From contig NC_092568.1 in NCBI RefSeq assembly GCF_037975245.1, positions 12,363,501-12,427,500 of the forward strand: a stretch of DNA of 64,000 nt, given 5' to 3'. Made by a program: the position numbers and the translations under genes. The notes below the pieces were generated by a model. That model saw only the letters and a program-made list of their open reading frames with translations, was not told where the DNA came from and did not search any database. Of this stretch, positions 72-20,700 are shown piece by piece; the first letter of the stretch is position 1; each line of letters opens with the position of its first letter. The stretch comes from Apostichopus japonicus. Lineage: Eukaryota; Echinodermata; Holothuroidea; Aspidochirotida; Stichopodidae.

Positions 72-3000
72 GTAAGTAAACGGCAGAGTTACATCATCAC
101 TAATCGCTTACTTGTCTCCTCACAACTGTTGCACCCCTCTCTCCCTAATGCTCTGTTTATTACTGTTTACATTGTTTCCTACTTTGCCATCTTACTGAAT
201 TACTCCTCCCTTCATTTACATCTCCATACCTCGGAAACCACATTAATTTTTACTAGACATGAAATTTTATTATATTACATCCTTAGATGTGTTCTTTTCT
301 GCCATTAAAAGTGTATTAGTGCCACCATTTTATGAATTACAATGTGCTTGATCCATATCCTTGCAATTTGAGAATGTCTGTTTGGAAATCCTTTGAACGT
401 TTTTGGGTGTTTTAAATGTTATATTCTCTTCAAGAAATCCAGATCAGCTGCTGTTATTTCTATTAAGTGTGTTATGTCAATCTACAAGTGGTTATTTGAT
501 TATTATTTCATCTTTTGTCTTATAAGGACGGTACGCCAATCCAAGCGTTAGTGGCCACATGTTTGAACCAGATCGTAGGGATCTCTATCACCAGACAGGA
601 GGAGGATATTGAGTACGTCCGCTCACACTACAACGTTGAGGATTTCATCTACTTCAACCACCATCGACGGGACCAACACGGCCATCTTCATCACTTTGCT
701 CTCAATCCTGTCTTCCAGCATTGGTCAAAGCATTTCCTGAAGGAGATCCTACGACAAGCCCATTACACCTGTCTGTATTATCCGGTTTACCCTGGCAACA
801 CTGAACAGGTAAGGACATTGGAAGGGACAAGCTTAAAGATACATGCTTACTTTATCCAGTCTACCCTGATAACACAGAACAGGTAAGGACATTGGAAGGG
901 ACAAGCTTAAAGATACATGCTTACTTTATCCATGCAGTCTACCCTGATAACACTGAAGACTAGGTTATTGGTAAGGAACAAGCTCAATATACATGCTTCT
1001 AGTATCCAGTCTACCCTGATAACACAGAACAGGTAAGGACATTGGAAGGGACAAGCTTAAAGATACATGCTTACTTTATCCATGCAGTCTACCCTGATAA
1101 CACTGAAGACTAGGTTAAAGGTAAGGAACAAGCTCAATATACATGCTTCTAGTATCCAGTCTACCCTGACAACACTGAACAGGTAAGGACATTGGAAGGG
1201 ACAAGCTTAAATTTACATGCTTTCTTTTTCCAGAATACCCTGATAACACTGAAGAGGTAATAAACAAGCCCAACATACATGGCTTACCTTATGCAGTCTA
1301 CCCCGATAACACTAAACAGATAAAGGACATTTAGATTACCCTACAGAAACATGCTTACTTTTTCCAGTCTGTTGTGATATCACTGAAGAGGTTAGGAACA
1401 AGCCCAATATACATGCTTATAGTATCCAGTCTACCCTGATAACACTTAACAGATAAAGGATATTTAAAAAGAGAAGCCTGCAGATACATGCTTACTTTAT
1501 CCAGTCTACCCTGATAACACAGAACAGGTAAGGGACAAGCCCATCATACGTACTTATAGTATCCAGTCTACCCTGATAACACTGAACAGGTAATGAAAAA
1601 ATCAGATGGATGGTTTTCTTCTCCTTTAAATAGGAGACTTTCATCATTGGTTAACAATTATAAGGATATTGTTTCATTTTCATCATGATATTAAAGTTCA
1701 CTACAAATAATGTTATTTTTCTTTTGCTTATTAGATGCTGGAGACTCAGTCACTGGTCACATGCTTGAACTTTATGGTTCCAATCAGAGCACGGAGGCAG
1801 ATTGCTTATCCATTGGATCAGCTGGGTCAGAATGCTCCTTCTCATCGGATCACAATTAAGCAGGTAATGGTACTCAAAAACTAATCACAACTCTAGTCAT
1901 ACCCTTCCTATCAGATTTGATCTGTTCTCACTCGAGTTATGGTACAAATGCTTTGAAGTATTCTTTGTGAAAGGAAGTGAAGTCATTACCTAGGTTATGA
2001 CTTGCTTCACCTTTGTAGAGTGTTCAAGCCTCCCTCCTCCCCCACAGGCTCCTTCCTCCCTCCTCTCCCACAGCCTAGGTCTCCTCCCCACAGCCTGCCT
2101 CCTCCCCCACCGCCTCCCTTTCCTCTCCCACAGCCTCTCTCCCCCTACTGCCTCCTCTTCTCCCCCACTGCCTCCCACTTCCTGTCCCACAGGCTTCCTT
2201 CTTCTCCCACCCCCCCCCCCTTTCACAGTCTCCTTTATCACATAAAAGTTGCTTTGTGTCATATGTTGATGTTTGTTTTGAAAGTACCAGAACTTATTGA
2301 GGTTTGCAGTCTCATGCAACCGACTGAAATATATTTTGTTTTAATTCATATGGATAGCAAGAGATATGACATTGTGAAAGAGTGCAACCAGCTGTTCTTA
2401 GGTCAACCATCTGATAACATAAGTAACATATTCACTTTCATTTTAAATATATTTTTCAGTATTGAATATTCATAAAAACTAAATATGTGTTGTTTGTTTG
2501 TTCATACAGGAACCCTATGCATTATGTCACATCAATCGTAAACTAAGCCTGGAGCCGAAGGTAACAGTGAATGCCAGGGTTGTGGTGGTCGGTGCTTCAG
2601 ATGTTGCTATTTCATTTCTAAACACTTTAGTGTTTTGGTAAGAACATCCCTTTTTTTTCCTTTTTTTTTTTCTTTTTTTTTTCTTCTTTTTTTTTCTTTT
2701 GTTTTGTGTGAAGAAAGATGATTTTGCTCTTTTCAAAGTAGTTTTCAGACTGAACAAATTGTTACAGCTATGGATGTTAACGTGCCAGGAATATTTACAC
2801 AAATGGTCGTAACATTTCTTCACCCTTATTTTCAGCCCTCATTTGAGGTTCAATAATCTGGTTTTAATCTCACCTCATGGATCACCCGGTGAATACATTA
2901 GTTCCTTTCTGTCGAGCCAGGAGTGCTTCACCCATGAAGAGATGGCACAGATCTCTCTAAGGACTTGGGTCAATGTTGTCAATGCTAAGATGATGGCTAT

Positions 3001-6000
3001 CAATAGGTGAGTACTATTAAAGAATGATCTGCACCTCTCCTGCACACTCTCCTCCCCCCCTCCCACTCCCTCCCCTTTACCTCCTCCACACCACTAATTG
3101 TCATAAATAAAGGAAACCTTCATATACCAGATTTTTAAAAGATGCAACTAATTACATCATCAAAACCTCAATCCTTTCTGCAATTCTGATTGTCATTATT
3201 ATTTGTTTCTAAAATTATTATCTTTAATATTAATACTATTTTATTTTATCATTTTTGTTATTCTTATTCTTATGATTGAATGTAAAGTTGATGCACAACC
3301 ACTAACTTGCAACACGAGATTCTTATTCTTATTCTTCTTCTTATTATTATTATTTTTATTATTATCATTATTATTATTGTTATTATTATTATTATGATAC
3401 TTGTTGTTGTTATTATGATTATTTTAAGAGAGAAGTAGGTGATACACAGCTAAATTTGATTCCAGCCATCACTTGTTTGCATATTTAAGCGAATACATCT
3501 CATCCAGTGCTTGAAATGACCATCACCTCTTCACGCTCTTGTCAGGTCAAGCAAGTACGTTAAGATCACTGGGGGCAAGAAGGTCCCATACGATCACCTA
3601 ATCCTGTGCACTGGGAAGCAATATTTCATCGGTGCACCCTCGGGAGTTGATATCAGCAACACGAGCAGTGCACCCACGATACCTGGTGTTTCCAGTAAAC
3701 GACTGATGGGCATCGTTCCGTCCAACGTCTTCACCATCAACGACCATTACGATGCTGTCCTGCTCACAAAATGGATGGATTTAAACTTCAAGGACACCGC
3801 AGGTACATTTCCTTAGAGGTTTCTTCCTGAGATTATTTCCTCACCATCCCTATTGATATGTCAAAGAGCTATAAATATTTTAGGTCAGTTTTTTTTGGAT
3901 GTGTGTATTAAACTCAAGCAGCAAGAGGTCACTTACCATATGTGTTTTAATTCCCAAGGTGTGTTTAACTGTTTAATTATTAATAAAGGTTTTCTTTACC
4001 TGGAAGGATAAGCAGTGATCTGTAGTATATTCAATTTTCAAATCTAAGAAACTTTATACATTTGAAATAGAGCAGAGATGGATCTCTATGTTGTCGTCGT
4101 AGATAGTAGATACAAAATGATCACCAGCAGCTTCACACGATCCTATGAGTGAGAAGAATTGTGTGGTTGTGATATTATTCAAGGTGGAAGGGAGTGAGGG
4201 GTGGGAGGGGGGGGAAGTGGACTGATTTGAAAGAGCGCAACACACACACCGCATGTGATAATCAGGATGTAATCGGTCATTTGTAAAAAGAAAACTTGGA
4301 TAAGATTTTTTTCTCTTCCAGTAAATCCAGTTAAAAATAAAGATTATGGAGTCATTTTTTTTTAAATATTTGTAAAAAAAATAAAGATTATGGAGTCATT
4401 TTTTTTTTTAAATATTTGCCTCAGTCAAATGTACTCTTTATTTTCCCATAGTCTAATTTACTGTTTCTTATCCAACGTCAAATTTACTATTTCTTTTCCC
4501 GAAGTCAAATTTACTCTTTGTTATTCCTAAATTTAATCTTTTACATTTTGTTATTTTGTAGTCTCTACTAGCAATATTTTTTGTGATAAATTACATTCTG
4601 TTTTGTTCATCAGAAAGGAATGTCACCCATGTGATACAATTTTTGTCACTGACTTTTAACTCTCTCGATTTTCCAGGTAAAGCCATAGTTTACGGCAGCA
4701 CCATTGATGCATACACAGCTGTGCAGGGTCTTCTTGACTTTGGGATCCCTGGGAATAGATTGGCCATGGTCCAACCACCCCTTGAGACTGGGATCACATG
4801 CTTCAACAATCCTACAGTGGAAGAGGCATGTCACGCTGCCATGAAGGCAGCTGGCGTAGAGGTGTACCAGGGGTACCAATTAGCCCAGTGGAACGATGGC
4901 AAAGATACCTCCGAGGTCTACTGTGCGTCGTTCACGTCCAGTACTAAGCCGTTAAAACTGGAATGCTCTCTCTTCATCTGCCTGCAGAAGAAAGCTGTAG
5001 ATTATGAAACTTTTAAAGGTCAGTGCTCTCTTTTACCACTGAAAGAAGAAGTGCAGGCTATATAGAAGAAAATCTCTTTCTAATGTAATTACCTCATATG
5101 GGTAGATATGTAGAAATGTCTGTAGTGTATGCCAGGGTATGGTGTGTTGTAGGATTAGTTGACTTCTTAATGTAAAGTAAGAAAGACCAGGTACAATACT
5201 TTTTTGGGACATCCTTTCTGGATATAATTGTACTGTATTTCGTAGATCCTCCTTCAAGCAAGAACTCGTGAAGAAGCCTCATTGGCTTATCAAAGCCGCA
5301 AGCTGACCGAAGTCAGTCTCTTAGATTCATATTTAACGTGCATGATTATCAATTGTCAACCACTCTGTAACTGGACGACATACATTGATCTTGGAGTGAC
5401 TCAAACCGGGGACCTTATGATTGGAAGGCACCGGTGTTAACCACTGAGCTAACACTCCTAATTGTTAAGTCTATTGCAATAGTTTTGTTGATATCTTCAG
5501 AGATTGCATCAGTTAAATGTGAGGAGCAGGGGAAGTAGTTTGAATTACCTAAATATCTTATTTGGAGGATACTTTGATGTATTTATACACCTTTTACTTT
5601 CCTCTCTTTACTCTCAGCCATCAATGACAGCTGCCTGGTCTATGACGGCAGTCTCGTCATCGATGCTAACTTTCATACCAACGATCTGTCCATCAGAGGA
5701 GCCGGTCCGCTGACAAAATTCAAGAGAAAGTATCATGCTGAACCATGGTAGGTGTTTATCATGTCCACATGTAACCATTTGTATGCTGAACCATGGTAGG
5801 TGTTTATGACCACATTTAACCATTTGTATGCTGAACCATGGTAGGTGTTTATCATGTCCACATGTAACCATTTGTATGCTGAACCATGGTAGGTGTGTAT
5901 AATGTCCACATTTATCCATTTGTACACTGAACCATGGTAGGTGTTTATCATGTCCACATTTAACCATTGTACACTGAACCATGGTAGGTGTGTATAATGT

Positions 6001-9000
6001 CCACATTTGACCATTTGTACACTGAACCATGGTAGGTGTTAACCATGTCCACATGTAAACAATTGCATGCTGAACTGTGGTAGGTGTTTATGACAACATG
6101 TAACCATGTGTATGCTGAACCATGGTAGGTGTTTATCATGTCCACATTTAACCATTGTACACTGAACCATGGTAGGTGTGTATAATGTCCACATTTGACC
6201 ATTTGTACACTGAACCATGGTAGGTGTTAACCATGTCCACATGTAAACAATTGCATGCTGAACTGTGGTAGGTGTTTATGACAACATGTAACCATTTGTA
6301 TGCTGAACCATGGTTGGTGTTTACCATGTCCACATGTAGTAACCATTTCCTCCTCCATGTTAAGTTACCCCCTGACAGGGTTATGTCAGTATTTACATTT
6401 AGACTTTCTTAATACCATACCTTATTCATTCTTTCATAGTTAACCCTGATAAATTGATTTTATTGTGACTATTATGATCAAAGCACAAAGAACAGCATCC
6501 CACTTTGAATGCGTTCTTGTCACCTGATGAGTCGTTAAAATACAGACCAGTTCTTTTTATGAGGAATTTGTTTAAATGAATCACTTGGGTTAAACTTAGT
6601 AAACAGTTGATGATGTTAAACCTTCATTGATATAAAAACCATTTGAGTATTTCTTGAGCTACTCATCGGGCAAGTTTGCATCGAGTTCCAGTTAAGGTCC
6701 ATTAGTTGTTGTGGATTTTGTTTTTCAAAGGTCCATTGATACACGATGCCAGCGACAAACTCTATCATACATGCAAAGATTTTATATTTCCATTACTCTC
6801 AGTGCTACAAGCACAACTACTATATAAATCTACTCAAACCTGTCTAACTCTATTTTCCAACACTTTGAAAGCTACCATTTTGTTGTTATCATGTGATGTT
6901 TTTTTTCTCAAACCAGTGACTTAAGGAAAAAGCTTGTTTGTTGTACTATTGTCAATATTTATGTTTGTCCACTTAACATTTTCACAGCCGATGTTCCAAG
7001 ACCTTATGTTTTATTGCAAATTCAAACTCGAAGCAAACATGGTCTTTGTCATAAATCACACTTGTTAAGTAACAGCTCACTGTAACCTTAAAGGGCTTAA
7101 AGAGATTGTTGTTAGCCTTCATCAGGAACAGAGCAGCAGTTCATTGAAAGAAATGTGTGAAAGATTGAAATTAATAAAGAATTGAATGGATAAATCTAGG
7201 AGAGAGTTGTGTTTTGTTGGCAAGTTAAGAAATATAAAAAAAGGCAACCACCTTTGTAAGGTTATACAAAATCCTTTCTTCTTTGCATGATTCGTTTAGG
7301 AGCCATGCAAACTTCAATTCCGTGGAGGTGGGCATATCTCTGGCCTCGACGATGCTGCGCCTCTTTGACCCGACCATCGAGAACGATGTCGATCCACCTG
7401 ATGAACCCCTCAACCTCATCCCCCTCTATGGCCAGTCAAAGGCCCAGAGTGGTGTCCTGCCTGGAGGGTATCACTACTTTCATTTTACCAAACCAAACCT
7501 GCCGGTTCCCTTAGAAGCTCAAACAGCACAGCTTGATTATGTAAGTCTCTTTCCTTGGATTATAAATGTTAGTCTTTCTAGTTTGGTTATAATATCTGCC
7601 AGCATTTGTCAAATATATTGATGATTGATATCATTGAATGATAGCTAAATAATAATTTTGACTTTTTGCCCATCCCACTGCTATCCTACCTGAATCTCAA
7701 TGATGAACAGATTCAAATTGGACTCATCTAATGTAACAAAAATTCTTTTAATGAGCTTTGAGATCGTTCAAATATTAAATTGAATGCGTAGGTATGCTCG
7801 TCAGTTAGTCGTCTGTAAACGTTCTGCTTTTTACTTTAGTAGCTGCAGTAAGGGCTTTATGTACCACGACATGCATGTATGTGTGTATGCGTGTATGTAT
7901 TTTAGATCCTCCTGCTCGCAGCAAATTGCGAAGAAGCCATCACTGGCTCATCAATGCCACAAGCTGACCGAAGTCAGTCTCTTAGATTCATAATTAACAT
8001 CCATGATTATGAATTGTCAACAACTCTGTGACTAGACGACATACCTTAATCTCGGAGTGACTCCAACTCGGGACCTTGATTGAAAGGCACCGATGCTGGC
8101 CAAAGGTGTTGGCCAAAGGTTTTCAGTCTTAAAAGCCATTACATTTAATCCATTTGGTTTATAATTCCCTGTCATATAAAGACAACTTTATGTAAACTGG
8201 ATTGCTTGTTCATTCATGAAACAAACCATTTTCCATTTTCAGGGCAGACAATTGGTGACTGGTTCTGCTGACGGCCCAGATCCTGACTATTTCAGGATCC
8301 ACGTGAATCAGTACAGTAGCATCGAGACCCTGACCTGCCTCTCTAAGAAAGTAAGTCAATTTGCTGAATTTTGCTTTTTTTTACATCTTGCTCTTAATGA
8401 CACTTTGACGAACAAAAGTCCATATGCATGAGAGCATGTGTGGATACACCCACTTATCCACACCCTCGCTAGGAAATATCCATAGGATATGTCCTTGTTT
8501 GTGAAGGATATACGCCTAGGAAGTATGTACTGTTGTTCATCAATGGCGGAGCGTCCATACAGTCAGGGGGGTGCGGATGCCCCCCTCCCCCTGACGGACT
8601 CAAATGGACTGCTGGTGCCCTTTTCAGCATTTGACCAGTTTGTACTTGTTCGCGATTATTGACTTTTTCATTGCGCTCTCATCTACCTATTGACATATGT
8701 CACATTTTGTTGGTGTAATTTTCTGACAAAATGCTCTAACGGCTGTCTTTAATTTATCGGCACTTCCGTTGTACGAAACTTTTTCCAAGAACTGTATGGA
8801 GGGGGGGGGTCCAGAATACCCAATAGGCACAACAGGCATTGTGTCAGGGCTCCGCTTAGATAGTGTCGAAAGCGCCCATGCAGATCATTCTCCACCCCCT
8901 CCCTGACCAATACCCCTAGCTCCGCCACTGTTGTTCTTGGAATCGAACATTCTATAGGATATATCCTTAAAATTAAGGCTAATGGAGATAATTAGGTGGT

Positions 9001-11268
9001 GGATAAAGATGTGCAATCACAGAACACACTAGCTTTGTGTACACAATTAAGAACCTATCTTCAATTGTCCGAGAGAGTGTGGTAGGTGTTTCAGGAGAAA
9101 TATTGCCCAATTGCCACCCACCCCTTTGCACAACCCCCCCTGGCCCTCCACCAGTAGTCAGGGGATGATTGTACAATGCCTCTAATTTGTGTTTTATAGA
9201 CTAGATGTCACTTGGAACTATCCTACTAGTGTTAAAAGTACCACAAAGGATGTCAATTTGTTAATCTGTCTTCAAGTCATCCATTTCTATCAAACAGAGG
9301 TAAACCAACAATTTACATGGTCTGATTAGATTATAAGAGAAAGTAGACCACACACAGAATCTTCTATCTGTTCTAAATCCAGTATTTTGTAAAGCATTTT
9401 GTGGTTAACCAAAGCCATGGGTATTTTTTCTCCTTCAGCCATTTGAGAAAAGCAATTACAAATGTCTGTACAACATCCACGAGAGATTCCTGAACAATAT
9501 GATCTCTAGGTTTGACGAAGGTCTCATCAAATCCTTCTACGAGTTCTTCAAGGAGAACTGGTGTTTGGCCATCTTCCATGACCGTTTCCAAGATTTCAGA
9601 CAAGAAGTTAGAGAGCTGTTGATTGAGAGACCCGTAAGTAATCGGAAGTAATATTCTATGCTCTCCTGTCCTGCTTCATAATTCTTCATTATAGGCATTA
9701 TTAGTAACGTTATTTGCAGTTATAAAACGATTATATATATGTATTACAAAATGTCTCATTATTTGCAACATGTGGGGTCAACAGTGGTTAAGTTTGCTTT
9801 TAGTTGAAAACGAATATCAAACACAATGCATTTATTGTATAAAAAGAAGGAAAAAATTTGATTACTTGGGGTAAGGAGAACATAACTTTACAGTCCAGTT
9901 CAAACTTATGTAAGTTTTGACTGATATGCAATCCCCACCAAAATCACTCAGATTAATTTGGACATTTTTTGCTAATTATTTCTATCCCTTCCCCTCCCTT
10001 AAAAAAAAGTGATATTTGCTGATCATTATCCTCAATAGTTAAGAATGTAACAGCTTTAGCCCTGATTCAATAAACAATGCAGACTAGGCTTAGTGGCTTA
10101 ATTCATCTGCTATGACAGTGCAGTGGGTGTAGATTAACGACTGATGTTTATTTTGGAAATGAACATACTTCCATAAGATCATGTTATGCATCTGTTGAAA
10201 CATTAATGCAACAATTATATAGCACACTACTTTCTTGTTCACGTGTATTTGGTGATAGCGTGAATTATGCTGTAAGTTCAATATTTGTGGCAGCATTATA
10301 TTAATCGATGTCCAGTGTAAAATGTTTGTGAGTTTGTTTTCGAACCTGTTTCCATACAGATTTGCTGTATCAATTTATTCTGTGTTTTTTACTTTACAGT
10401 CGGCAGATGTCGCTTCACTCGAAGAAAAAATCCAAGAGTTGATTTCCCAGGATCTTGAGGTAAGTCGTGACACTGACAGTCGAATGTTCAAACAGTGACA
10501 GGTCACACACCGTCAGTTTCACACCTTTGGTACTCGCAGCTGCAGAACATTGTAATTCTCACAGGATGAGTTAACTAGTCCACTTTGAAACCTCCCCCAA
10601 TTCCCGAGAGTAATATTAGATCGTGTAGCCCTCAGGAAAACACTTCACAGGCAATTTTAGCAAGGCTCCAATTCTGGGATGAGATAGAGAGAGAGGAAAT
10701 TGAAAATTGGATCCATCTAAAGGAAAGAAATTTGTGGATGATAGATTTTGCTGTTGGGCTCCTTTTTCTGACCTTTCATTTTAAATATTTGTTTAGTATT
10801 TTTTTTGAGCATAAAGTTAAGTTCCTATCTATTGCTGTAAAATTGAAAAAATTTACTTTTTTTTTTAATTTTATTTTAAATTTCACTCTCTTTAATTAGG
10901 AATCACAAAAATTCTGTTGGCAAATTGCTTGCAAACTCAAAGCACTGTTTACGTAAAATGTTAATCTGTAGAAGTTTCTAAATAGTACGATCTTCTGATC
11001 CAAGCGATATCTATTCTCAAGGAGTGTCTGCAACTTTAAAGATATTTCAGATCCTCCTCTCTGTGAATTTTTCTGTATGATTTTTGCTTGGTTGTAATTA
11101 ATATTCACATTTTTTAATATTTTACAGTTGGAGCAAAGAGACAGAAAGTACTTGCTAGATGAGTTTACAAAGACTGGAACCAAGAGATCAGTTGAGACAA
11201 GACTTTTGAGTTTCTTGAGTTATAATTACTATCATCTCCCTATGTATGCCAAACCTGGCATGGTGTAA
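1..11268 (+). CDS. CFAP61: CFAP61 (cilia- and flagella-associated protein 61), C-terminal 13 exons
   Basis: Thirteen coding segments join in frame with GT-AG borders: 1-71, 527-808, 1735-1863, 2510-2637, 2836-3006, 3546-3802, 4677-5018, 5618-5747, 7300-7540, 8243-8350, 9439-9633, 10400-10459, 11128-11268 (TAA at 11266). They encode about 750 residues, roughly the C-terminal 60% of the family's usual length near 1,200. Recognised by conserved blocks such as [48 protein letters not shown] and the C-terminal [24 protein letters not shown] (visible residues about 184-191) and ILCTG resemble dinucleotide-binding motifs of a Rossmann-like fold. In the family, CFAP61/FAP61 belongs to the calmodulin- and spoke-associated complex at the base of radial spokes and is needed for ciliary and sperm motility. 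The 5' exons lie left of the window. Introns 2 and 8 contain minisatellites that copy the exon end and donor; introns 7 and 9 contain SINEs; intron 10 holds a hAT MITE. Confidence 0.95.
527..808 (+). CDS. CFAP61: CFAP61 visible exon 2
   Basis: Acceptor TTATAAG precedes 527; donor GTAAGG at 809. Ninety-four codons, phase 0 at both ends, with [13 protein letters not shown] and [20 protein letters not shown] typical of the family. Its last 12 codons and donor are the template of the tandem array that follows. Confidence 0.93.
797..1592 (+). repeat. Minisatellite A: about 11 copies of a 72-78 bp unit built on a CFAP61 exon end plus donor
   Basis: The unit holds a copy of the exon tail that reads [10 protein letters not shown] in the exon's frame (the exon reads [10 protein letters not shown]), then GTAAGG and about 45 nt of intron start. 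GTAAGG donors recur at 809, 883, 971, 1033, 1121 and 1183, among others. Unit lengths alternate near 78 and 72 bp over much of the array, giving a 150-bp higher period. Distal copies are more divergent. Confidence 0.9.
1735..1863 (+). CDS. CFAP61: CFAP61 visible exon 3
   Basis: Acceptor TTGCTTATTAG, donor GTAATG. Forty-three codons, phase 0 to 0. Contains [19 protein letters not shown], close to the human PVRPRRQIVYPLEKLG block as recalled from memory. Confidence 0.93.
2028..2232 (+). repeat. Degenerate pyrimidine-rich tandem repeat with repeated CACAG
   Basis: Imperfect repeats of a CTCCTCCCCCACAG-like unit on the + strand inside a CFAP61 intron. CACAG ends fall at about 2047, 2073, 2093, 2133, 2192 and 2228. 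Each resembles a polypyrimidine tract plus 3' splice site, while the real acceptor lies at 2509. Long open frames here (Pro/Ser-rich on +, Gly/Arg-rich on -) are compositional. Confidence 0.75.
2510..2637 (+). CDS. CFAP61: CFAP61 visible exon 4 (Rossmann-like glycine motif)
   Basis: Acceptor TTCATACAG, donor GTAAGA at 2638; phase 0 to 2. Encodes [16 protein letters not shown] followed by [14 protein letters not shown], a strand-loop-helix resembling the start of a dinucleotide-binding fold, with a GxS turn in place of the full GxGxxG. Confidence 0.93.
2836..3006 (+). CDS. CFAP61: CFAP61 visible exon 5
   Basis: Acceptor CTTATTTTCAG, donor GTGAGT at 3007. The split codon joins TG and C to give Cys. 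Encodes [18 protein letters not shown] and [10 protein letters not shown], continuing the Rossmann-like domain. Confidence 0.93.
3546..3802 (+). CDS. CFAP61: CFAP61 visible exon 6
   Basis: Acceptor CTCTTGTCAG, donor GTACAT at 3803; enters in phase 2 and leaves in phase 1. Carries [14 protein letters not shown], which resembles the second conserved motif (ATG-like) of FAD/NAD-dependent oxidoreductase folds. Confidence 0.93.
4677..5018 (+). CDS. CFAP61: CFAP61 visible exon 7
   Basis: Acceptor GATTTTCCAG, donor GTCAGT at 5019. About 114 residues: [20 protein letters not shown] is a further strand-turn-helix, followed by [16 protein letters not shown]. Phase 1 at both ends. Reading past the donor continues open only by chance to about 5065. 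Confidence 0.92.
5243..5461 (-). mobile_element. tRNA-derived SINE, copy 1
   Basis: On the - strand the element starts at 5461 with a tRNA-like head: TTAGCTCAGTGGTTAACAC resembles an A box and GGTTTGAGTCACTCC a B box of the internal RNA polymerase III promoter. The body contains GACTGACTTCGGTCAGCTTG and the 3' end is near GGAGGATCTA at 5243. A second copy at 7903-8100 shares the body. Confidence 0.75.
5618..5747 (+). CDS. CFAP61: CFAP61 visible exon 8
   Basis: Acceptor TTACTCTCAG, donor GTAGGT at 5748; phase 1 to 2. Encodes [20 protein letters not shown] and ends KYHAEPW. Its last 17 nt and donor seed the 48-bp minisatellite downstream. Confidence 0.92.
5731..6345 (+). repeat. Minisatellite B: about 13 copies of a 48-bp unit built on a CFAP61 exon end plus donor
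   Basis: The first unit straddles the exon 8 / intron border. Every copy repeats a TGCTGAACCATG-like exon tail followed by GTAGGTGT. Donor-like GTAGGT occurs at 5748, 5796, 5841, 5889, 5937, 5985, 6032, 6080, 6125, 6172, 6220 and 6268, with GTTGGT at 6313; spacing is 45-48 bp. Because 48 is divisible by three, long repetitive reading frames appear on the - strand; they are by-products of the repeat. Confidence 0.92.
7300..7540 (+). CDS. CFAP61: CFAP61 visible exon 9
   Basis: Acceptor TTCGTTTAG, donor GTAAGT at 7541; first base completes the Trp codon of the previous exon. Encodes [40 protein letters not shown] and [16 protein letters not shown], all strongly family-like. Confidence 0.94.
7903..8100 (-). 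mobile_element. tRNA-derived SINE, copy 2 (degraded head)
   Basis: Shares with 5243-5461 the 3' GGAGGATCTA end, the GACTGACTTCGGTCAGCTTG core and the GAGTTGGAGTCACTCC-like B box. The A-box part of the head is eroded. Same - strand orientation, in a different CFAP61 intron. Confidence 0.7.
8243..8350 (+). CDS. CFAP61: CFAP61 visible exon 10
   Basis: Acceptor CCATTTTCAG, donor GTAAGT at 8351; 36 codons, phase 0 to 0. Encodes [20 protein letters not shown] and [12 protein letters not shown]. Confidence 0.94.
8541..8930. mobile_element. hAT-type MITE, 390 bp
   Basis: Imperfect terminal inverted repeats: CAATGGCGGAGC at the left, GCTCCGCCACTG at the right. Direct 8-bp flanks TTGTTCAT (8533-8540) and TTGTTCTT (8931-8938) match at 7 of 8 positions, the target-site size of hAT transposons. 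No transposase frame. Related sequence recurs at 55329-55602. Confidence 0.8.
9439..9633 (+). CDS. CFAP61: CFAP61 visible exon 11
   Basis: Acceptor TTTCTCCTTCAG, donor GTAAGT at 9634; 65 codons, phase 0 to 0. Encodes [20 protein letters not shown] and [20 protein letters not shown], a highly conserved block of the family's C-terminal region. Confidence 0.95.
10400..10459 (+). CDS. CFAP61: CFAP61 visible exon 12
   Basis: Short exon of 20 codons ([20 protein letters not shown]), probably helical. Acceptor TTTACTTTACAG, donor GTAAGT at 10460; phases fit both neighbours. Confidence 0.88.
11128..11268 (+). CDS. CFAP61: CFAP61 last coding exon
   Basis: Acceptor AATATTTTACAG. Encodes [13 protein letters not shown] and the conserved terminus [18 protein letters not shown], then TAA at 11266-11268. 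The match to the human C-terminus recalled from memory fixes both the gene identity and the stop. Confidence 0.95.
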   Translation: MEQRDRKYLLDEFTKTGTKRSVETRLLSFLSYNYYHLPMYAKPGMV

Positions 11269-11278
11269 ACACTGAAAA

Positions 11279-11284
11279 AATAAA
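11279..11284 (+). promoter_or_regulatory. Candidate polyadenylation signal of CFAP61
   Basis: AATAAA starts 11 nt after the stop codon. Cleavage 10-30 nt further on would give a very short 3' UTR. Other AATAAA hexamers occur further downstream in this AT-rich region, so the assignment is only a candidate. Confidence 0.35.
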
Positions 11285-14200
11285 CAAGTGCTCTGGAAAT
11301 GAAACCCAAAATTGAATTCATAACTCTAATGTCTACTTCTTCAAAGAGGTGTTAATTTACTGGTCGCAATAGGTATAAAAATATATATTGGATGTATAAG
11401 AGATCTTGGGATCTGAAAAAAAATTGTTGCCTTTTTTTTTTTCATTTTTGTTGCTATGATTTTGGAAATTTAGGAGCTACACCAACAAATTTGTTTGTGG
11501 TTTTTAATTTTTTTGTTGATTGCATTTTGGGGCAGTTGATGCAAATTCTTCACCAAAGCTGTCCAGAAAATGACAAGATGTTACAGGTATTCTATTTACC
11601 ATACTATTTAAGCATTCAAATTTCAGAATAAGTGTATATATTTTTTGTGCAGTACCAAAATGACATTACAGATTATTGTACCAATTTACGAATTTAATAT
11701 TTAATATTGTTTGTATTCAAACTGTATTGAAATCTTGTTATTCGATACCTTATGGAGATGAGAATTTTGAAATTAGCTCCATTTTCTTTTTTCTGTTTGT
11801 CATATGTATGCAAAGATGATGTATAGTTTTTCTCTTAATTTTCTGGCAGTTGAGATGTTGTTTCCCCCTTAAAGTTTGTAATATGTACATATAATTTATA
11901 GAATATAACTGCACTATACAGTGAAAGTTTACTTTCCAATCACCTTGAACAATTGTGCAAAGAATTGCTGAGATGCAGAAACCTTTGTACAGTCGATATA
12001 GAGTTACAAATACATTTCTAAATATCAGTTGTCATATTTCATAATTTAATGTCAACACTTTTGTTTGAATTGGTTCAAGGACTCTTTAGTCATAGGTATA
12101 GGCACAGCAGTTAATGCTCTCAAACTAGTTATTTTAAACCAGTTTATTGTTGAAGCCTTCAAGGAGTATGAAGTGAAGATGTAAACTGTTGATCTGACAA
12201 TAGGTTCCTGTGTATAAACCAGTGTTGTTACTCTCCCCATGATGTAACTTATATTTTCCAATAATTTTATGTGAAGCATATAAAAACCATAAGTATTTTT
12301 GCTTTATCTACAAGAAATTCAATTAGATTATCGTATGATGAGAAGTGTAGAGATTTAGTGCAGAGATATTGTGGAAAATTCAGCATGGATTTATGTATAC
12401 AGCTTATTCTTTTGGGGCAATCAATATAACTTATGTATATGTGGCGGGGGTTGTCTGGGTTACGGTAGGGAGAGGCTTGCATTCGTTCTTATTTTGCACT
12501 GTATTTTTCAGCACTTTACTTAGATTAACAGTTATCTTAAAGATGTTTGGTCTTTTAAAAACTGATGAATTCATTATATAATAGAGAAACTGTTGACTTT
12601 ACAAATTCTGTCTTGACTGAATTTTCTCTTGTACTTTCATTACATGGAAACCATAAAACACATGAAATGCTGTTGTTCTTTTATAGACATTCTGTTTGAA
12701 TTTATTTTTGGGATTTAGAATTTAAAGGGTACATGCACCAATGATTTAATGCCGTTAATGTGTATAGTCTGAAAACAATATCTCAGTACTATGCAATGGA
12801 GAAGGGAAGAAGTGGTGTGTGTCGAGAGAGGGGGAGGGGGGGTGCTGAAGAAATTGTAGAACACTTATAAATATTCATATGTTGCTTTTGTTATGTAAAA
12901 AGCAATGTGTTTCACATTTTATATCAATTTAGCAAATAGGTAAAATAGATCAATTTGTTCAAGTCATGACTGCCTGATACATTGCATAACCCACTTCAAA
13001 GGCCACAATCACAGGTATACTACCCAAAACATCCTGGTTTGTTTCGTAAGATATTCATCATATTAACATGCACAGGCATACACAAGTCATCATTATATGA
13101 CAGCATGTACTCTGTTTGGCAAGGAAGGGAAAAAACATCAAATTCCATTGTTTGTTCTTTTTCAATTTAGTCTGATTGAAATACATACAACATGAAATAT
13201 CTATTTCTTTAACATCAATTTTCTTCATCAAATATTTATTTTTGTATTTCACAAAAAAAAGGAGAGCATGGTTGAATATCTTCATGAAAGTTTGATTTAC
13301 AATGAATAACACAAAAGATTAATTTTAAGATTAATTTTATGATTGAACCAACATAATTATATAATCTATAAAGTGAGATATGAGTGTGTTTCTTATATCA
13401 TAAACACACTGTTTATCTCTCAGACAACCTCAAGGAAGAGGTTTGATTCATGTCTAAATAAATACTGAAAACTCAAACCGCTGGTCAACCCATAAAATCA
13501 GCCAGACCCCTGAAATACAATACATTCACCTAATAATGAAGAAGATGAAAGTAGGTATGGATATAGTAGTTTTAAAGTTCTTCTAGTCAAAACAAAAGAA
13601 GGCTGCCTTCATAATTTTTTATATTTTTGGGGTACCTTCTAGTTTCTGGCTTTTTCTTCTCTCTTAATTCATTTGCCATACACACACTGACCTGCCCCAA
13701 TGACATTTGCCGTAATGCTTTCTCAAAAGTGCTTCAAAAATGTCAGCAGGGTTAATTTTAAATGTGTTTACTTATTGTCTCTCCTTAACATAGCATGAAA
13801 TGTGGTCAACAGGTATGTTGATCAGTTTCACTCTGTTACAGCTCTTACTAAACAGATTGCAGATAACAAGAAAGAAGCAATACCTTAAATATTTCGGTCA
13901 GGGCTTTGCACTGGACTGGCAAGGACCGAGGTAAATTATGTAACCAATACGGCTAAGGCAATTCAACCATCGCCGTGGTAATTGTTTCTTCATTTTTGTA
14001 TTTCAACAAAATTATTTAAAGCGAAAAATACTCAAAAATACATGAAAGATATTAGAGCACTGATAAACATTGATCCATCGCAAATCTCATTTACGTGGAA
14101 TTGAGATGTCATGAATTGTTATGAGTGAAGTACTTTGATGAAAAGATAAAATAATGACATAAATTATAAAGCATACAATGGTTAAATATGGAATGAATAG

Positions 14201-14809
14201 TAAATAGAGACAGGGGGGGGGGGAGAAAGTTTGGGTTTTGTTTTCTTGGTTAATTAAAAGTCATAACATGAATAATGTATAAATTTGGAAAAAAAGTAAA
14301 ACAAAATGGCATAGATGAGAATGAAACTGATCATGTGAAGAGAAAATAACATCTCACACTAATTAGAAGCAGCTATTTATGTTAAATATTTAAAGTTAAA
14401 TATTTTATTTTAATGCTAGCATTTGATAATAAACTCCACTAAATATGAGAGTTGTTTGTAATTAACAATTAAAAGTTGTCTTTCAGTTAATAAACAAAAG
14501 TCCAACATGAATGAAAATTCATGGATAGCTCTCTTTTATGTATTTGATGAAATATTTGATATGGTTCCCTTAGTTTGATGGATTGTAACTTTTCATCAAA
14601 TTGCCTGAAATTGATGAACAAACAGCTGATTCAATCACACGTTTAATTAAATTTGTTCGTTGTACAATGTTTCTTTATGTGGTGATCATTCCAGTTAAGG
14701 CAAACTAAACCACCTCAGTTACATGAGTATGAAATAACAATATTTCTATTTGAATAATTCTAGCCTCTAACAGTTCTTATAAAACATGAACTAGAAAATT
14801 AAAAATAGT

Positions 14810-15170
14810 TTCTTAAGATTTTATTGTAAAGAAGAACATGTAAATGTAAACATGTAAAATATGAAAAGTATTATTTAAAAAAAAACACCAAACAAAAAAG
14901 GTAAGAAAAAAATAGCATATTCGGGTTAAGAATTCAAATGGAACAATTTTAATTAAGCACATATTATTTGCTATTTGACACAATTGAATTTCTGATAGTT
15001 TTTGAGATTTTATTATAAAGAGGAGCATGTAAATAAAGATATGAAAAGTATTATTTCAAAAGAAACAACAAAAAAGAGAGTAAGAAGAAATAAGCATATT
15101 CGGGTTAAGAATTAAAATGGAACAATATTAATCAAGTACATTTTATTTGCTTACAAATTTGCATTTCTGA
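14810..15170. repeat. Tandem duplication of about 190 bp
   Basis: Two adjacent diverged copies begin at 14815 and 15005 (AGATTTTATTGTAAAGAAGA against AGATTTTATTATAAAGAGGA). Both contain GCATATTCGGGTTAAGAATT and TATTTGCT. Confidence 0.75.
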
Positions 15171-16038
15171 TCCTTTGATTTACCACAAATAAGATCACAA
15201 ATAATTTCAACAACAAAAAATCCCTACTGGTTGTGAATCATCCTTTTTTACCTCCTTATTCAAGTTAAATTGATGTCCTACCAAAGGAATTCTAGAACTC
15301 ATTAATACCTTTGTGCCATTTTCTGTACAACCATGCCTTTGTCTTAGTTTTTTGGCCACCTATTACAAGAGATTGGATCATTAGAGTTCCATCTTTTCAC
15401 TGTTCACACAAAGTCAATGTCAGAAGTTGGAATTTGAAAGAAGTTAATGATTTAATTAATAAAAACATTTGAGAGTTTCAACTTTAAACAGCGTCACTTC
15501 CAACTGAGAAGATACTTTCTTTGATGTTTAGTTGACACACAGAGAAAAATTGCTTTTAGCAATCTTGAGGTTATGAAAGTATTTCTACTGTTTTCCTCAA
15601 AGGTACCAAACGGTCTATAACATCTTTGTATGTGTACAAGGTTTATGAAAGTCTAACTACTCTATGGGAGTAAAAAACGTACTGATCATTCTGAATAAAA
15701 ATTGAAAACAATGCTTCAAGGTTACTACGCCATTCTCACTTTCCATTTCTAAAAATAACATAGGTTGTTTAACAGAAGTTTACATGAAAGAGCAGCACAT
15801 TTTACCATACAGCTTCAAAATTTAGCTGAAAGTAGAATAACTAAATAATGCAATTTGACAGCTATAATCAGGTTTTCTTGCAAAATAATACAAAACAAAT
15901 ATATGACTAGAAAAAGTAAGGGATGGTATATGTGTGGGTGTGTGTGTGTATGACCTGCAATACACAAGTCTCATTCATCGACAGAATAATAATATACTGC
16001 AACAGAGAGGTAGAGAGAGTTACTCAGAGGCCTGACAG

Positions 16039-16143
16039 AATACGTACTGGGATGTTCTGATGGGCAGACGTCTCACCTAATACGTACTGGGATATTCTGA
16101 TGGGCAGACGTCTCACCTAATAAGTACTGGGATGTTCTGATGG
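16039..16143. repeat. 40-bp tandem repeat, about 2.6 copies
   Basis: AATACGTACTGGGATGTTCT starts at 16039 and recurs with one change at 16079 and 16119. The first two copies end in GGGCAGACGTCTCACCT. Confidence 0.85.
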
Positions 16144-16682
16144 CTCAGGTATGCTCATGCTTGATGTGCCTTATTTTAATATCACGAAACAAATGCACCT
16201 ACTCCGTAAATAGTAGAAATTCTTTAAAAAGTGTTTCTAGGAAGTTTCTTAATATCAGGTTACCTTACCACAACCAGATTTATGCATATCTGAATGCTAT
16301 ACAATAATTAAAACTTGTTTATCAATTTTAAACAATTTTTGTGAAAGTAAATTAAGTTTCCTCAGAGTACCATTAAAGAACCCTTCGGATCCATTTTCAA
16401 TTATTAAACAGTGCAGCATCCCAATCAAAAGTACCTAAATATGATTTTATAGAAATAATCCACTAAAGAATACCAAATAATAGAATAGGTACTAAACAGA
16501 AGAATCTTATATAACTTCCCTAATTTAGTATCAGATGAGTTAAAATTTATGTCTGTGATTTCTTGGATTAAAAATTAAACATTTACTTGTGTACTAACTT
16601 TATGCACTCCCAATATGTAAAACTATTCATTCCTGCTTACAACTGTATAAATTTCTGTATAAAACAACACACAAGAGGTGGC

Positions 16683-16688
16683 TTTATT
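16683..16688 (-). promoter_or_regulatory. Candidate polyadenylation signal of GALNT7
   Basis: AATAAA on the - strand about 700 nt after the GALNT7 stop. Further - strand AATAAA hexamers occur lower in the AT-rich region, so this is only a candidate. Confidence 0.25.
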
Positions 16689-17384
16689 CTGTTGAAAAAT
16701 TTGCCTTCCAAGCCAATTTCGCACATACTGCTCTGTGTCCCTACGAAAGACCTGTTGTACTGTTGGGCACGTTTTGCACTATTGTGCAAATTTGCACTGT
16801 TTTGCACTGTTGTGCACTATATTTAGGTTTTGCTTTTAGTCTAAAACAAAAGTATCTCTCGTTTTGTAAGTTTTAACAGTTTTCTTTAATAATCATCTTA
16901 TTTAAGTTCTACATGACCTGCTAACTAAAATACCAACCTCCATAATACCCCACTCCAAACTTCAAGAATTCCATAAGTTGTACAACTACACAGTTCCCTT
17001 CCTTGTTGGCATTAGTTTCCATCACTGGGATTCTTTTAAGCTCTCCTAGTTAAAGAAACTGGATATTACAGAGTGAGTAGCATAGTAATAAAATAAACTG
17101 CAAACATCTGAGTTGATATAATCACAATATTTCAAATCAGAACAAAACGTTATCATCATATAAATTCTTTCTCCCTCTCTCTCTCTCTCTCTCTTTATCA
17201 AATATTTCATTGGTATGTCCAATGTTCGGAAGCTGATTTTCACTCTCTTAATTACAGATGGGCTACTCGTGCTCTCTCGAACTGATCATATTTTCAGCCT
17301 CCTTTCTTGCCTCTCGTTCTGGATAAAACTCCCCTGTGCCGTGTACGGACGGACATTTGAGTCTTCACTCGCGGTGTGAATCCT

Positions 17385-17540
17385 TCATCTGTTCTGATTC
17401 ATTTTAGCTATGAACAGATTCTCGTATGTGAAGTCCCATTTTTGTGACGTTTTTGTTGTGTCACACGGAGCCATCGATAAAATGTTCTTGTTTACTTCGA
17501 TACAGCGGTTGGTATCTGTGAGGAATATTGCACCTGTTTC
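17385..17540 (-). CDS. GALNT7: GALNT7 exon 10: lectin gamma repeat and stop
   Basis: Acceptor GTTGTTGCAG. Encodes [29 protein letters not shown] and a short basic tail; TGA at 17387-17385. Cys and QxW spacing fit the third ricin-type repeat. Confidence 0.92.
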   Translation of the reverse strand, partial: ETGAIFLTDTNRCIEVNKNILSMAPCDTTKTSQKWDFTYENLFIAKMNQNR

Positions 17541-17663
17541 CTGCAACAACAAAAAATATAAAGACAGTTATCCAACCTGTCAAATCAAGGAATGTATAAT
17601 ATTTAGACAGAATGACATAATCATGCATGACTAATGTGGCTCTCTGGTAAGGAACAAAATCAA

Positions 17664-17708
<45 letters not shown>

Positions 17709-20700
17709 TTTCTTATTGTAAACCCAGTGATATTGTGCATCTTTATCGCTTATTACTAACCTTATTGCAATCCCAGTGATACTGCGCATCTTTATCCTTT
17801 AGTACTAACCTTATTGTAATCCCAGTGATACTGTGCATCTTTATCGTTTATTACTAACCTTATTGTATTCTCAGTGATACTGTGCATCTTTATCGTTTAG
17901 TACTAACCTTATTGCAATCCCAGTGATACTGTGCATCTTTATCGTTTATTACTAACCTTATTGCAATCCCAGTGATACTGTGCATCTTTATCGTTTAGTA
18001 CTAACCTTATTGCAATCCCAGTGATACTGTGCATCTTTATCGTTTAGTACTAACCTTATTGTAATCCCAGTGATACTGTGCATCTTTATCGTTTATTACT
18101 AACCTTATTGCAATCCCAGTGATACTGTGCATCTTTATCGTTTATTACTAACCTTATTGCAATCTCAGTGATACTGCGCATCTTTATCGTTTATTACTAA
18201 CCTTATTGTAATCTCAGTGATACTGTGCATCTTTATCGTTTAGTATTAACCTTATTGTAATCCCAGTGATACTGTGCATCTTTATCGTTTAGTACTAACC
18301 TTATTGTAATCCCAGTGATACTGTGCATCTTTATCGTTTAGTACTAACCTTATTGTAATCCCAGTGATACTGTGCATCTTTATCGTTTATTACTAACCTT
18401 ATTGTAATCTCAGTGATACTGTGCATCTTTATCGTTTAGTACTAACCTTATTGTAATCCAAGTGATACTGTGCATCTTTATCGTTTAGTACTAACCTTAT
18501 TGTAATCTCAGTGATACTGTGCATCTTTATCGTTTAGTACTAACCTTATTGTAATCCCAGTGATACTGTGCATCTTTATCGTTTAGTACTAACCTTATTG
18601 TAATCCCAGTGATACTGTGCATCTTTATCGTTTAGTACTAACCTTATTGTAATCCCAGTGATACTGTGCATCTTTATCGTTTATTACTAACATTATTGTA
18701 ATCCCAGTGATACTGTTCCTCTTTATCGTTTAGTACTAACCTTATTGTAATCCCAGTGATACTGTGCATCTTTATCGTTTATTACTAACCTTATTGTAAT
18801 CCCAGTGATACTGCGCATCTTTATCGTTTTGTACTAACCTCATTGTAATCCCAGTGATACTGCGCATCTTTATCGTTTAGTACTAACCTCATTGTAATCC
18901 CAGTGATACTGTGCATCTTTATCGTTTAGTACTAACCTTATTGTAATCCCAGTGATACTGTGCATCTTTATCGTTTAGTACTAACATTATTGTAATCCCA
19001 GTGATACTGTTCCTCTTTATCATTTAGTACTGACCTTATTGTAATCCCAGTGATACTGTGCATCTTTATCACTTAGTACTAACCTTATTGTAATCCCAGT
19101 GATACTGTTCATCTTTATCACATCTTCGTAGATGTAATTCAGAGGACTTTTCATATGCACACTGTTCATTCACTCGGAACTGTCCATCCATTGTCAACTT
19201 AAAGAGCTGATTACCGCCGGCACCGTGACAGTAACTGACCCCTAATTGACCCCCATCTCGTCTACCCATAGAATCGATGCAACGCCTTTGGTCCATGAGT
19301 CGCACCTTCAATGAAGAGAATAGATATGAAAAATGAACCAGACACTTAGAAGTTGAGGATATCCACACAGTGCAATGTATTAGGAAAGAATCCTACCAAA
19401 GCAAAAAGAATTAAGCCACCACTTAGCCTTGAAATATGTATTTCCATTTGCTTTAGACACGGATATAGCCCGATGCTATCCACTGCAATATCAAGATAGA
19501 GGGGAACCTTTAGAAATAGATTTTGTTCATAAGAATTTCTATGAAGAGGAACAGACAACCAATCACCTGTGCGACAGTTCCAGATACTGCTAGCCCTCTC
19601 TGAGTGCAGAATGCAGAGAAATCAATTAGCATGGGTGAAGCCAATTTAATCAGAAGGCTGTGTTAAAACCACTTTAGAGGTTGCCTACCACCATTTTGTA
19701 GTTTTGTTGTTTCTAATGTTAGTGTTTTTATACATATTAAACTTTTGTTTTTGCTCTTGGGCAAGGTGGAGAGGGGATAGGCAATGTAGCCTCCCCCACC
19801 CCTTCCCCCCCCCCCTCCCCCACCACCGATTCTACCACCGACATACTCCATGCCGCTCAAATGATGCAACAGCTCTATAGCAGTAAATTTGAAGAGATAA
19901 GATCTTGTCACAGAGTAAATGCTACTTTATGGCACTCCAAGGCATTAGATGCTTCAGCAGATTTGACAGTTTGTGGGACTTCCCAGAAGACTTCTCTCAT
20001 GTCAATTCCCGTCATAACGTATGACAAGAAGAAGAAGAAAAGAACGGTCTCAAAGGAAGAAGAGATGGTAGTCATGAAAAGTATTACTGACTTCGACACA
20101 AAATAAGTCAGATTTATGAAATCACAATTTCATTTTAAGCATAGAGACACTTAACCAGGTTAAGCTACATGTACATAGGGCTTCAGATACAGTTGAGAAA
20201 GGTCACCAAACACTCATTGGCCTCCAGTGTCAAAGGTGATCTGTTTGCCCTCCTCAGAATGTTGAAACTGCTGAAAAACTGCTAAAAAAACTGCTAAAAA
20301 GTTTTGATATTAAGCCCCATCATGGAGGTTGTGCCCCCTTCAGGTTAAAGCTAGATACTGAGAAGTGTGCAATTAGAACAATCACATACCTCAGTGAAGT
20401 CAAAAGAATCAAAGGTGCTACCAAAAATGGGGGGGGGGGTATGATGCAAAACTGGAAGGGTAGTGTAACAGTTTGTAATTAGTGATGACACCAACATACA
20501 TGTTTGGCAAAAAATATGATTTGGGACATTTTATGACCATAAAATTATAATTGGCACAGGTTGTTCAAACTTACCTCCCCCCAAACTTTATTCTTTGCTG
20601 GAAGAGGATACTTGATGGTGATGTCTGGAGCGACTTCTTTCATAAACCAATCAAATGACTTGCAATTGTGGCTTTGCCTAAATTCAAGCTGTTTCTTGAT

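What the first reader, a model, noticed from the sequence alone, without database searches (positions are those of the whole stretch)
797..19121. Three intronic minisatellites are each built from an exon end plus its own splice donor
In two CFAP61 introns (808 onward; 5747 onward) and one GALNT7 intron (19084 downward on the - strand), a tandem array begins exactly at the exon's 3' border. Each repeat unit contains the exon's last 15-40 nt followed by the donor and early intron. Units differ in sequence and length (72-78, 48 and 49 bp), so these are three separate events on opposite strands in unrelated genes, yet with identical architecture. Chance tandem repeats would not be expected to be registered to exon/intron borders three times among some 26 introns. 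This suggests a recurrent process that amplifies donor junctions, or tolerance or selection favouring arrays that preserve a donor at every copy. It gives each intron 11-28 competing donors and raw material for new micro-exons.
Basis: partly seen in the sequence, partly recalled or inferred. Interest (0 to 1): 0.9.

Follow-up and report, generated by a model that had tools for sequence, protein, structure and literature searches.

The report
Exon-border minisatellites in sea cucumber genes
In this genome, probably a sea cucumber's, short DNA repeats often start exactly where a gene's coding segment ends and copy the splice signal many times; such repeats were known one gene at a time in lancelets and people, and here they look like a common and mostly harmless class at the start of introns.

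Summary
Three arrays, two in CFAP61 and one in GALNT7, start inside a coding exon's last 13-38 nt and repeat exon tail, splice donor and intron start. In whole-genome pattern scans, 22 of 44 resolved donor-motif arrays begin at a coding exon end by my unblinded reading, against 11-18 of 79 lone donor motifs; by Pfam, 11 of 44 against 4 of 79. Acceptor-motif arrays abut a coding exon in 0 clear and 1 uncertain of 20. In the window arrays every later donor tested gives a premature stop, and selection for the extra donors is not clearly supported. Best reading: duplications across a donor are tolerated because the most upstream donor is used, as reported for human F7 intron 7. The class is known: amphioxus "mirages", human F7 and CBS repeats. 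New here: abundance in an echinoderm (inferred Apostichopus japonicus), a moderate excess over lone motifs, and a donor bias. Known kind, new member.

The parts
527..808 (+). CFAP61 coding exon whose 3' end seeds array 1
   Evidence: open frame of 94 codons; no Pfam match of its own; CFAP61 named from neighbouring exons
779..1593 (+). array 1: 12 unit starts spaced 62-78 bp, each with exon tail (about 31 nt), donor CAG|GTAAGG or a decayed form, and intron start; TRF also gives a 150-bp period
1735..1863 (+). next CFAP61 exon; of the donors tested only the first (808/809) joins to it in an open frame
5617..5747 (+). CFAP61 coding exon whose 3' end seeds array 2
5735..6338 (+). array 2: 13 units mostly 45-48 bp with 13 exon nt and donor ATG|GTAGGT; TRF also gives a 188-bp period
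7300..7540 (+). next CFAP61 exon
   Evidence: Pfam CFAP61_dimer 6.3e-8 on 7301-7540; frame test
19084..19305 (-). GALNT7 lectin exon whose 3' end (19084) seeds array 3
   Evidence: Ricin_B_lectin 8.1e-12 on 19087-19302
17712..19119 (-). array 3: about 28.7 units of 49 bp, 95% match, exon tail 36-38 nt plus donor AAG|GTTAGT; the 26 places listed with exon-end DNA as query all lie at this locus
17388..17540 (-). last GALNT7 exon; of the donors tested only the first joins to it in an open frame
   Evidence: Ricin_B_lectin 2.8e-4, below Pfam's cut-off

Best explanation
These are exon-border minisatellites of the 'mirage' type. A tandem duplication, by replication slippage or unequal exchange, covered the end of an exon, its donor and the start of the intron, and was then amplified, also as multi-unit blocks. 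The gene stays intact because the spliceosome uses the most upstream donor, the one still joined to the real exon; all further copies are just added intron. The same rule (upstream site first) would tend to make copies of an acceptor harmful, since an upstream acceptor copy would add sequence to the exon; so donor-spanning arrays survive and acceptor-spanning arrays are rarer. Shown: anatomy, genome-wide recurrence, excess over lone donor motifs, donor/acceptor difference, premature stop with every later donor tested in the window. Inferred: the duplication route, use of the first donor, and purging at acceptors.
For: 22 of 44 donor-motif arrays start at a coding exon end by reading against 11 (strict) to 18 (lenient) of 79 lone AGGTRAGT sites (p=3.3e-5 and 0.0027). 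Pfam E<=0.01: 11 of 44 against 4 of 79, p=0.0027 (hits mapped back to loci). Acceptor arrays: 0 clear and 1 uncertain of 20, while lone acceptor motifs start a coding exon in 6-8 of 40 by reading and 2 of 40 by Pfam; 22/44 against 1/20 p=0.0005. Only the first donor leaves an open frame: 0 of 8, 0 of 11 and 0 of 21 later donors tested. Donor 9-nt windows are unremarkable in two of three arrays. Human F7: in the 37-bp repeats only the most upstream donor is used normally (PMC6627357, passage). Amphioxus mirages are said not to disturb splicing (PMC3087553, PMC3902484, passages).
Against: No RNA was available, so donor use is unproven. The reading of exon ends was not blinded. Six of the 22 (L013, L131-L134, L138) share only 0-6 nt with the exon and may simply start at the donor; without them p=0.14 against the lenient count. 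Acceptor arrays are not significantly rarer at exons than lone acceptor motifs (1 of 20 against 8 of 40, p=0.25). Against the acceptor rule: the human CBS 844ins68 allele duplicates an acceptor junction yet makes normal mRNA because the more distal site is strongly favoured (PMC2630376, passage), and amphioxus globin BflGb6 has acceptor-side mirages with 150-160 bp units (PMC3087553), a size my patterns could not see. Mean donor-column conservation is above that of the other columns in all three arrays (0.889/0.829, 0.974/0.870, 0.976/0.967), and in array 2 the donor window is in the top 6%. More arrays in transcribed DNA generally could explain part of the excess.
Confidence: 0.63

Rival explanations
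1. Ordinary minisatellites that land on donors at the rate of uniform placement; nothing about donors matters.
For: Real donors are a sizeable share of donor-like 8-mers (11-18 of 79 lone sites), so many donor-motif arrays must lie on them anyway. Restricting to 8 or more shared exon nt removes significance (p=0.14). The exon share of the unit varies widely (0-38 nt).
Against: Odds ratios 3.4-6.3 against lone motifs by reading and Pfam; 22/44 at donors against 1/20 at acceptors although lone donor and acceptor motifs have similar coding shares (18/79 against 8/40).
Confidence: 0.22
2. Array birth is directed to working donors, for example by R-loops, pausing or U1 binding that promote slippage there.
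For: Excess over identical motifs that are not exon ends; three further arrays start roughly 50-110 bp past a likely coding donor (L008, L137, L143).
Against: No direct evidence of such a mechanism; tolerance alone could explain the donor/acceptor difference; general enrichment of arrays in genes was not excluded.
Confidence: 0.15
3. Arrays are kept because many donors help: stronger exon definition, U1 occupancy, or supply of new micro-exons.
For: GT intact in 13 of 13 and 28 of 28 units of arrays 2 and 3; donor columns slightly above the mean of the rest in all three arrays and in the top 6% of windows in array 2; array 1 units carry an acceptor-like TTATCCAG or similar before the exon tail.
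Against: Donor windows of arrays 1 and 3 rank only at 51% and 43%; GT lost in 2 of 11 units of array 1; later donors give premature stops.
Confidence: 0.06
4. Assembly artefact.
For: Tandem repeats can be misassembled; one amphioxus mirage was judged aberrantly assembled in a draft genome (PMC3087553).
Against: The assembly that G000 appears to be was made from PacBio HiFi reads (PMC10344927, passages), which are usually longer than these 0.6-1.4 kb arrays (recalled); units differ from each other.
Confidence: 0.02

Closest known systems
Amphioxus 'mirages' (Adh3, globins BflGb6/9, TnC, PGBD5)
   Different: Described in cephalochordates gene by gene and at both borders; here an echinoderm (inferred), many genes, and donors only among the small-unit arrays sampled.
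Human F7 intron 7 37-bp repeats
   Same: The first repeat holds the real donor, homologous repeats follow, and only the most upstream donor is used normally (PMC6627357, passage).
   Different: Single human locus with splicing data; none here.
Human CBS 31-bp VNTR, c.1444_1467+7(16_21)
   Same: By its coordinates the unit is 24 exon nt plus 7 intron nt, 16-21 copies (PMC2630376, passages).
   Different: Polymorphic human locus; its link to enzyme activity was seen only as a reference title (Lievers 2001).
Human internal tandem repeats at exon-intron boundaries in segmental duplications
   Same: Repeats at borders alter intron structure (PMC2812944, passages).
   Different: There they form novel introns in recent paralogs; here the ancestral junction is inferred to be kept.
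Intron gain by tandem duplication of AG/GT (Rogers model)
   Same: The duplicated segment contains AG/GT (cited in PMC3087553; primary papers not seen).
   Different: There a new intron arises inside an exon; here an existing intron is extended.

Membership tests
mirage (exon-border minisatellite) | tandem repeat unit spans an exon-intron boundary | tested here: met
   exon tail, donor and intron start in the units of all three window arrays
mirage (exon-border minisatellite) | many copies keep AG/GT splice signals | tested here: met
   GT in 9 of 11, 13 of 13, 28 of 28 aligned units
mirage (exon-border minisatellite) | unit length in the 10-160 bp range | tested here: met
   45-78 bp
mirage (exon-border minisatellite) | does not interfere with regular splicing | not testable with these tools
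   no RNA; of the donors tested only the first keeps the frame open
mirage (exon-border minisatellite) | copy-number or somatic instability | not testable with these tools
   one assembly only
F7-type: most upstream donor wins | later donors are not used in normal splicing | tested here: inconclusive
   every later donor tested gives a premature stop; use not measured

The most novel reading that the evidence does not exclude
Working 5' splice sites in this echinoderm are preferred birth places of minisatellites: something tied to donor function seeds tandem duplication there several times more often than at identical motifs elsewhere, giving perhaps one to a few thousand introns a donor-anchored array, while small-unit arrays across acceptors are lost because splicing tends to take the upstream site.
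Probability: 0.17. Interest if true: 0.8.

Novelty: new member of a known kind. Interest (0 to 1): 0.5.

Why it matters
It moves a phenomenon described gene by gene in amphioxus and at two human loci to a class with many independent members in one genome, with a measurable donor bias. Each array is a natural experiment with many near-identical donors in a row, so long-read RNA could directly test whether the most upstream 5' splice site always wins, an old question about splice-site choice. It also shows one cheap route by which introns grow and raw material for new exons accumulates.

Tried and rejected
Reversed-motif controls printed by the search tool: place counts (1100 against 770, 254 against 78, 127 against 111, 730 against 892, 42 against 402, 22 against 67) are dominated by long arrays and dispersed repeats, so I dropped them as a test and used lone motifs instead. 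A first, longer acceptor pattern gave 0 places against 37 for its control.

A codon-usage exon score trained on 667 codons was too weak, and its automatic first-copy finder failed on several loci; not used for counts. Pfam and reading were used instead.

Selection on donor columns: not clearly supported.

A fourth array in the window (16039-16143) carries AG|GTGAG in its units on the - strand but lies past the GALNT7 stop codon with no exon seen; not counted.

Rows dropped or unresolved: L141 and L074/L147 (array longer than the fetched flank); L040 dropped from the lone motifs because it lies in the L056 array. Family copies L059/L060, L075 and L009 were kept; dropping three of them gives 22/41, p=0.001. 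A mismatched comparison, the 15 firmest of 44 against the lenient 18 of 79, gives p=0.21. The lone motifs were all AGGTRAGT, also for the AGGTATGT arrays; the AGGTRAGT arrays alone by Pfam are 8 of 30 against 4 of 79, p=0.003. Pfam alone, acceptor against donor arrays: 0 of 20 against 11 of 44, p=0.013; the five CTTTNCAGG arrays in that 20 were judged by reading only.

Papers: one search found none; some searches were seen as listings (10 of 14: 10 of 59: 15 of 315 shown). No echinoderm report of such arrays appears in those listings, which is weak evidence of absence. The original amphioxus Adh paper was not held; it is known here through PMC3087553. PMC4039745 (C. elegans minisatellites near alternative exons) was seen as outline and abstract only; PMC3778950 passages had nothing on this.
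Full report
What is there. The window holds part of CFAP61 on the + strand and GALNT7 on the - strand. Three minisatellites begin inside the last nucleotides of a coding exon and run into the intron: CFAP61 779-1593 (exon ends 808), CFAP61 5735-6338 (exon ends 5747) and GALNT7 19119-17712 (exon ends 19084). Units are 62-78, 45-48 and 49 bp with different sequences. Exon nt in the unit are about 31, 13 and 36-38. TRF also gives periods of 150 bp in the first and 188 bp in the second, a sign of multi-unit amplification. With DNA of the GALNT7 exon end as query, the 26 matches listed all lie at this locus.

Which donor can work. I joined each exon, extended to each later donor copy found by motif, to the next exon. 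Only the first donor leaves the frame open: later donors open in 0 of 8 (first array), 0 of 11 (second) and 0 of 21 (third); each gives a premature stop. The motif search missed some decayed copies. The first donor is no stronger than the rest: its 9-mer recurs unchanged in 5 of 11, 10 of 13 and 22 of 28 units. So position must decide if the gene is to work.

Is it more than chance? Listings stop at about 100 places, so the sample comes from the first contigs. From I fetched flanks of 46 arrays (the 11 arrays I count's listing, the 15's, and the new arrays, with one of six loci of a G-rich dispersed family). Two stayed unresolved. In 22 of 44 a coding exon ends at the first donor by my reading; this was not blinded. 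Pfam at E<=0.01 supports 11 of 44: Yju2, glycosyltransferase, tyrosine phosphatase, Kri1, C2H2 zinc finger, Fy-3, NAP, Ldh_2, RWD, EF-hand and Bcl-2 exons (mapped; RWD, EF-hand and Bcl-2 are below Pfam's own cut-off). As the null I took lone AGGTRAGT sites spread over the genome: 80 fetched of 100 listed, 79 used. By reading, 11 (strict) to 18 (lenient) are coding exon ends; by Pfam 4. Odds ratios are 3.4-6.3 with p between 3e-5 and 0.003. If only the 16 arrays sharing 8 or more exon nt are counted, p is 0.14.

Donor against acceptor. Tandem TTTTNCAGG (complete list: 14 independent arrays and one dispersed family by my count) and CTTTNCAGG (complete list: 5 arrays) were checked on the 3' side at the last exact motif, with decayed ends re-read for some. 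None of 20 clearly abuts a coding exon; L190 lies close to a likely exon and is uncertain; L188 and L191 end about 100 bp or less before likely exons. Lone TTTTNCAGG sites (40 fetched's list) start a coding exon in 6-8 of 40 by reading and 2 of 40 by Pfam. Donor arrays 22/44 against acceptor arrays 1/20: p=0.0005; acceptor arrays against lone acceptors: p=0.25. So the donor/acceptor difference is clear, while depletion at acceptors is only a trend.

Selection. In the three window arrays, which were not chosen by motif, mean conservation of the donor columns is above that of the rest (0.889/0.829, 0.974/0.870, 0.976/0.967), but the donor window ranks only at 51%, 6% and 43% of 9-nt windows. This does not clearly support upkeep of donors.

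Species. Total length and contig sizes (671.58 Mb; 46.04, 18.20, 29.64 and 20.39 Mb) lie very close to the HiFi assembly of Apostichopus japonicus (671.6 Mb, 34 scaffolds, chromosomes of 18.21-46.02 Mb, N50 29.65 and N90 20.40 Mb; PMC10344927, passages). This is an inference.

How common. Six donor-spanning AGGTRAGT arrays in about 33 Mb and eight AGGTATGT arrays in about 110 Mb extrapolate to about 120 and 50 genome-wide. If AGGTRAGT donors are 5-10% of all donors (my assumption), the class would number one to a few thousand. This is rough.

What is known. Tandem repeats spanning exon-intron borders were named mirages in amphioxus Adh3 and reported in globins, TnC and PGBD5, without disturbing splicing (PMC3087553, PMC3902484, passages). 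Human F7 intron 7 carries 37-bp repeats in which only the most upstream donor is used normally (PMC6627357, passage), and the CBS 31-bp VNTR is c.1444_1467+7 (PMC2630376, passages). The listings (10 of 14 and 10 of 59 papers shown) hold no echinoderm case that I could recognise. The finding is thus a known kind in a phylum where I found no report of it, with new evidence of abundance and donor bias.

Mechanism. Best supported: ordinary tandem duplication, kept because the upstream donor is taken first. The same rule would explain why acceptor arrays are missing, but it is not absolute: in human CBS 844ins68 a duplicated acceptor junction is tolerated because the distal site is favoured (PMC2630376), and amphioxus has acceptor-side mirages with larger units. 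Donor-directed birth remains possible, since tolerance does not fully explain the excess over lone motifs; general enrichment of arrays in genes was not tested.

Noticed in passing
window 16039-16143: 2.6 copies of a 40-bp repeat; on the - strand its units carry AG|GTGAG, but it lies past the GALNT7 stop codon and no exon is visible.
   Followed up: partly
window 17665-17707: A run of 43 G (C on the - strand) just after the last GALNT7 array unit.
   Followed up: no
window 32802-35848: A 177-bp satellite, about 17 copies at 90% match, with a 347-bp period as well.
   Followed up: no
window 779-1593: Most array 1 units carry an acceptor-like CCAG or GCAG just before the repeated exon tail, so a unit could act as a micro-exon of about 23 nt.
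   Followed up: no
window 5240-5460 and 7900-8110: Two similar dispersed elements (shared CTGACCGAAGTCAGTCTCTTAGATTCATA) in CFAP61 introns.
   Followed up: no
window 31364-31960: Open frame matching zf-RVT (2.2e-7), a retrotransposon remnant.
   Followed up: no
L143 700-860; L008; L137: Arrays that start roughly 50-110 bp past a likely coding donor; in L143 the intron start itself looks like a diverged first unit.
   Followed up: partly
L074 and L147 (G000 C12:65220 to beyond 71400): A 43-bp array with AAGGTGAGT in most units, over 6 kb long; its start was not reached.
   Followed up: partly
L188, L190, L191: Acceptor-motif arrays lying roughly 40-100 bp upstream of likely exon starts.
   Followed up: partly
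G000 C15:12449232-12554536: Satellite of about 197-bp spacing carrying TTTTCCAGG, which fills much of the acceptor-motif list.
   Followed up: no
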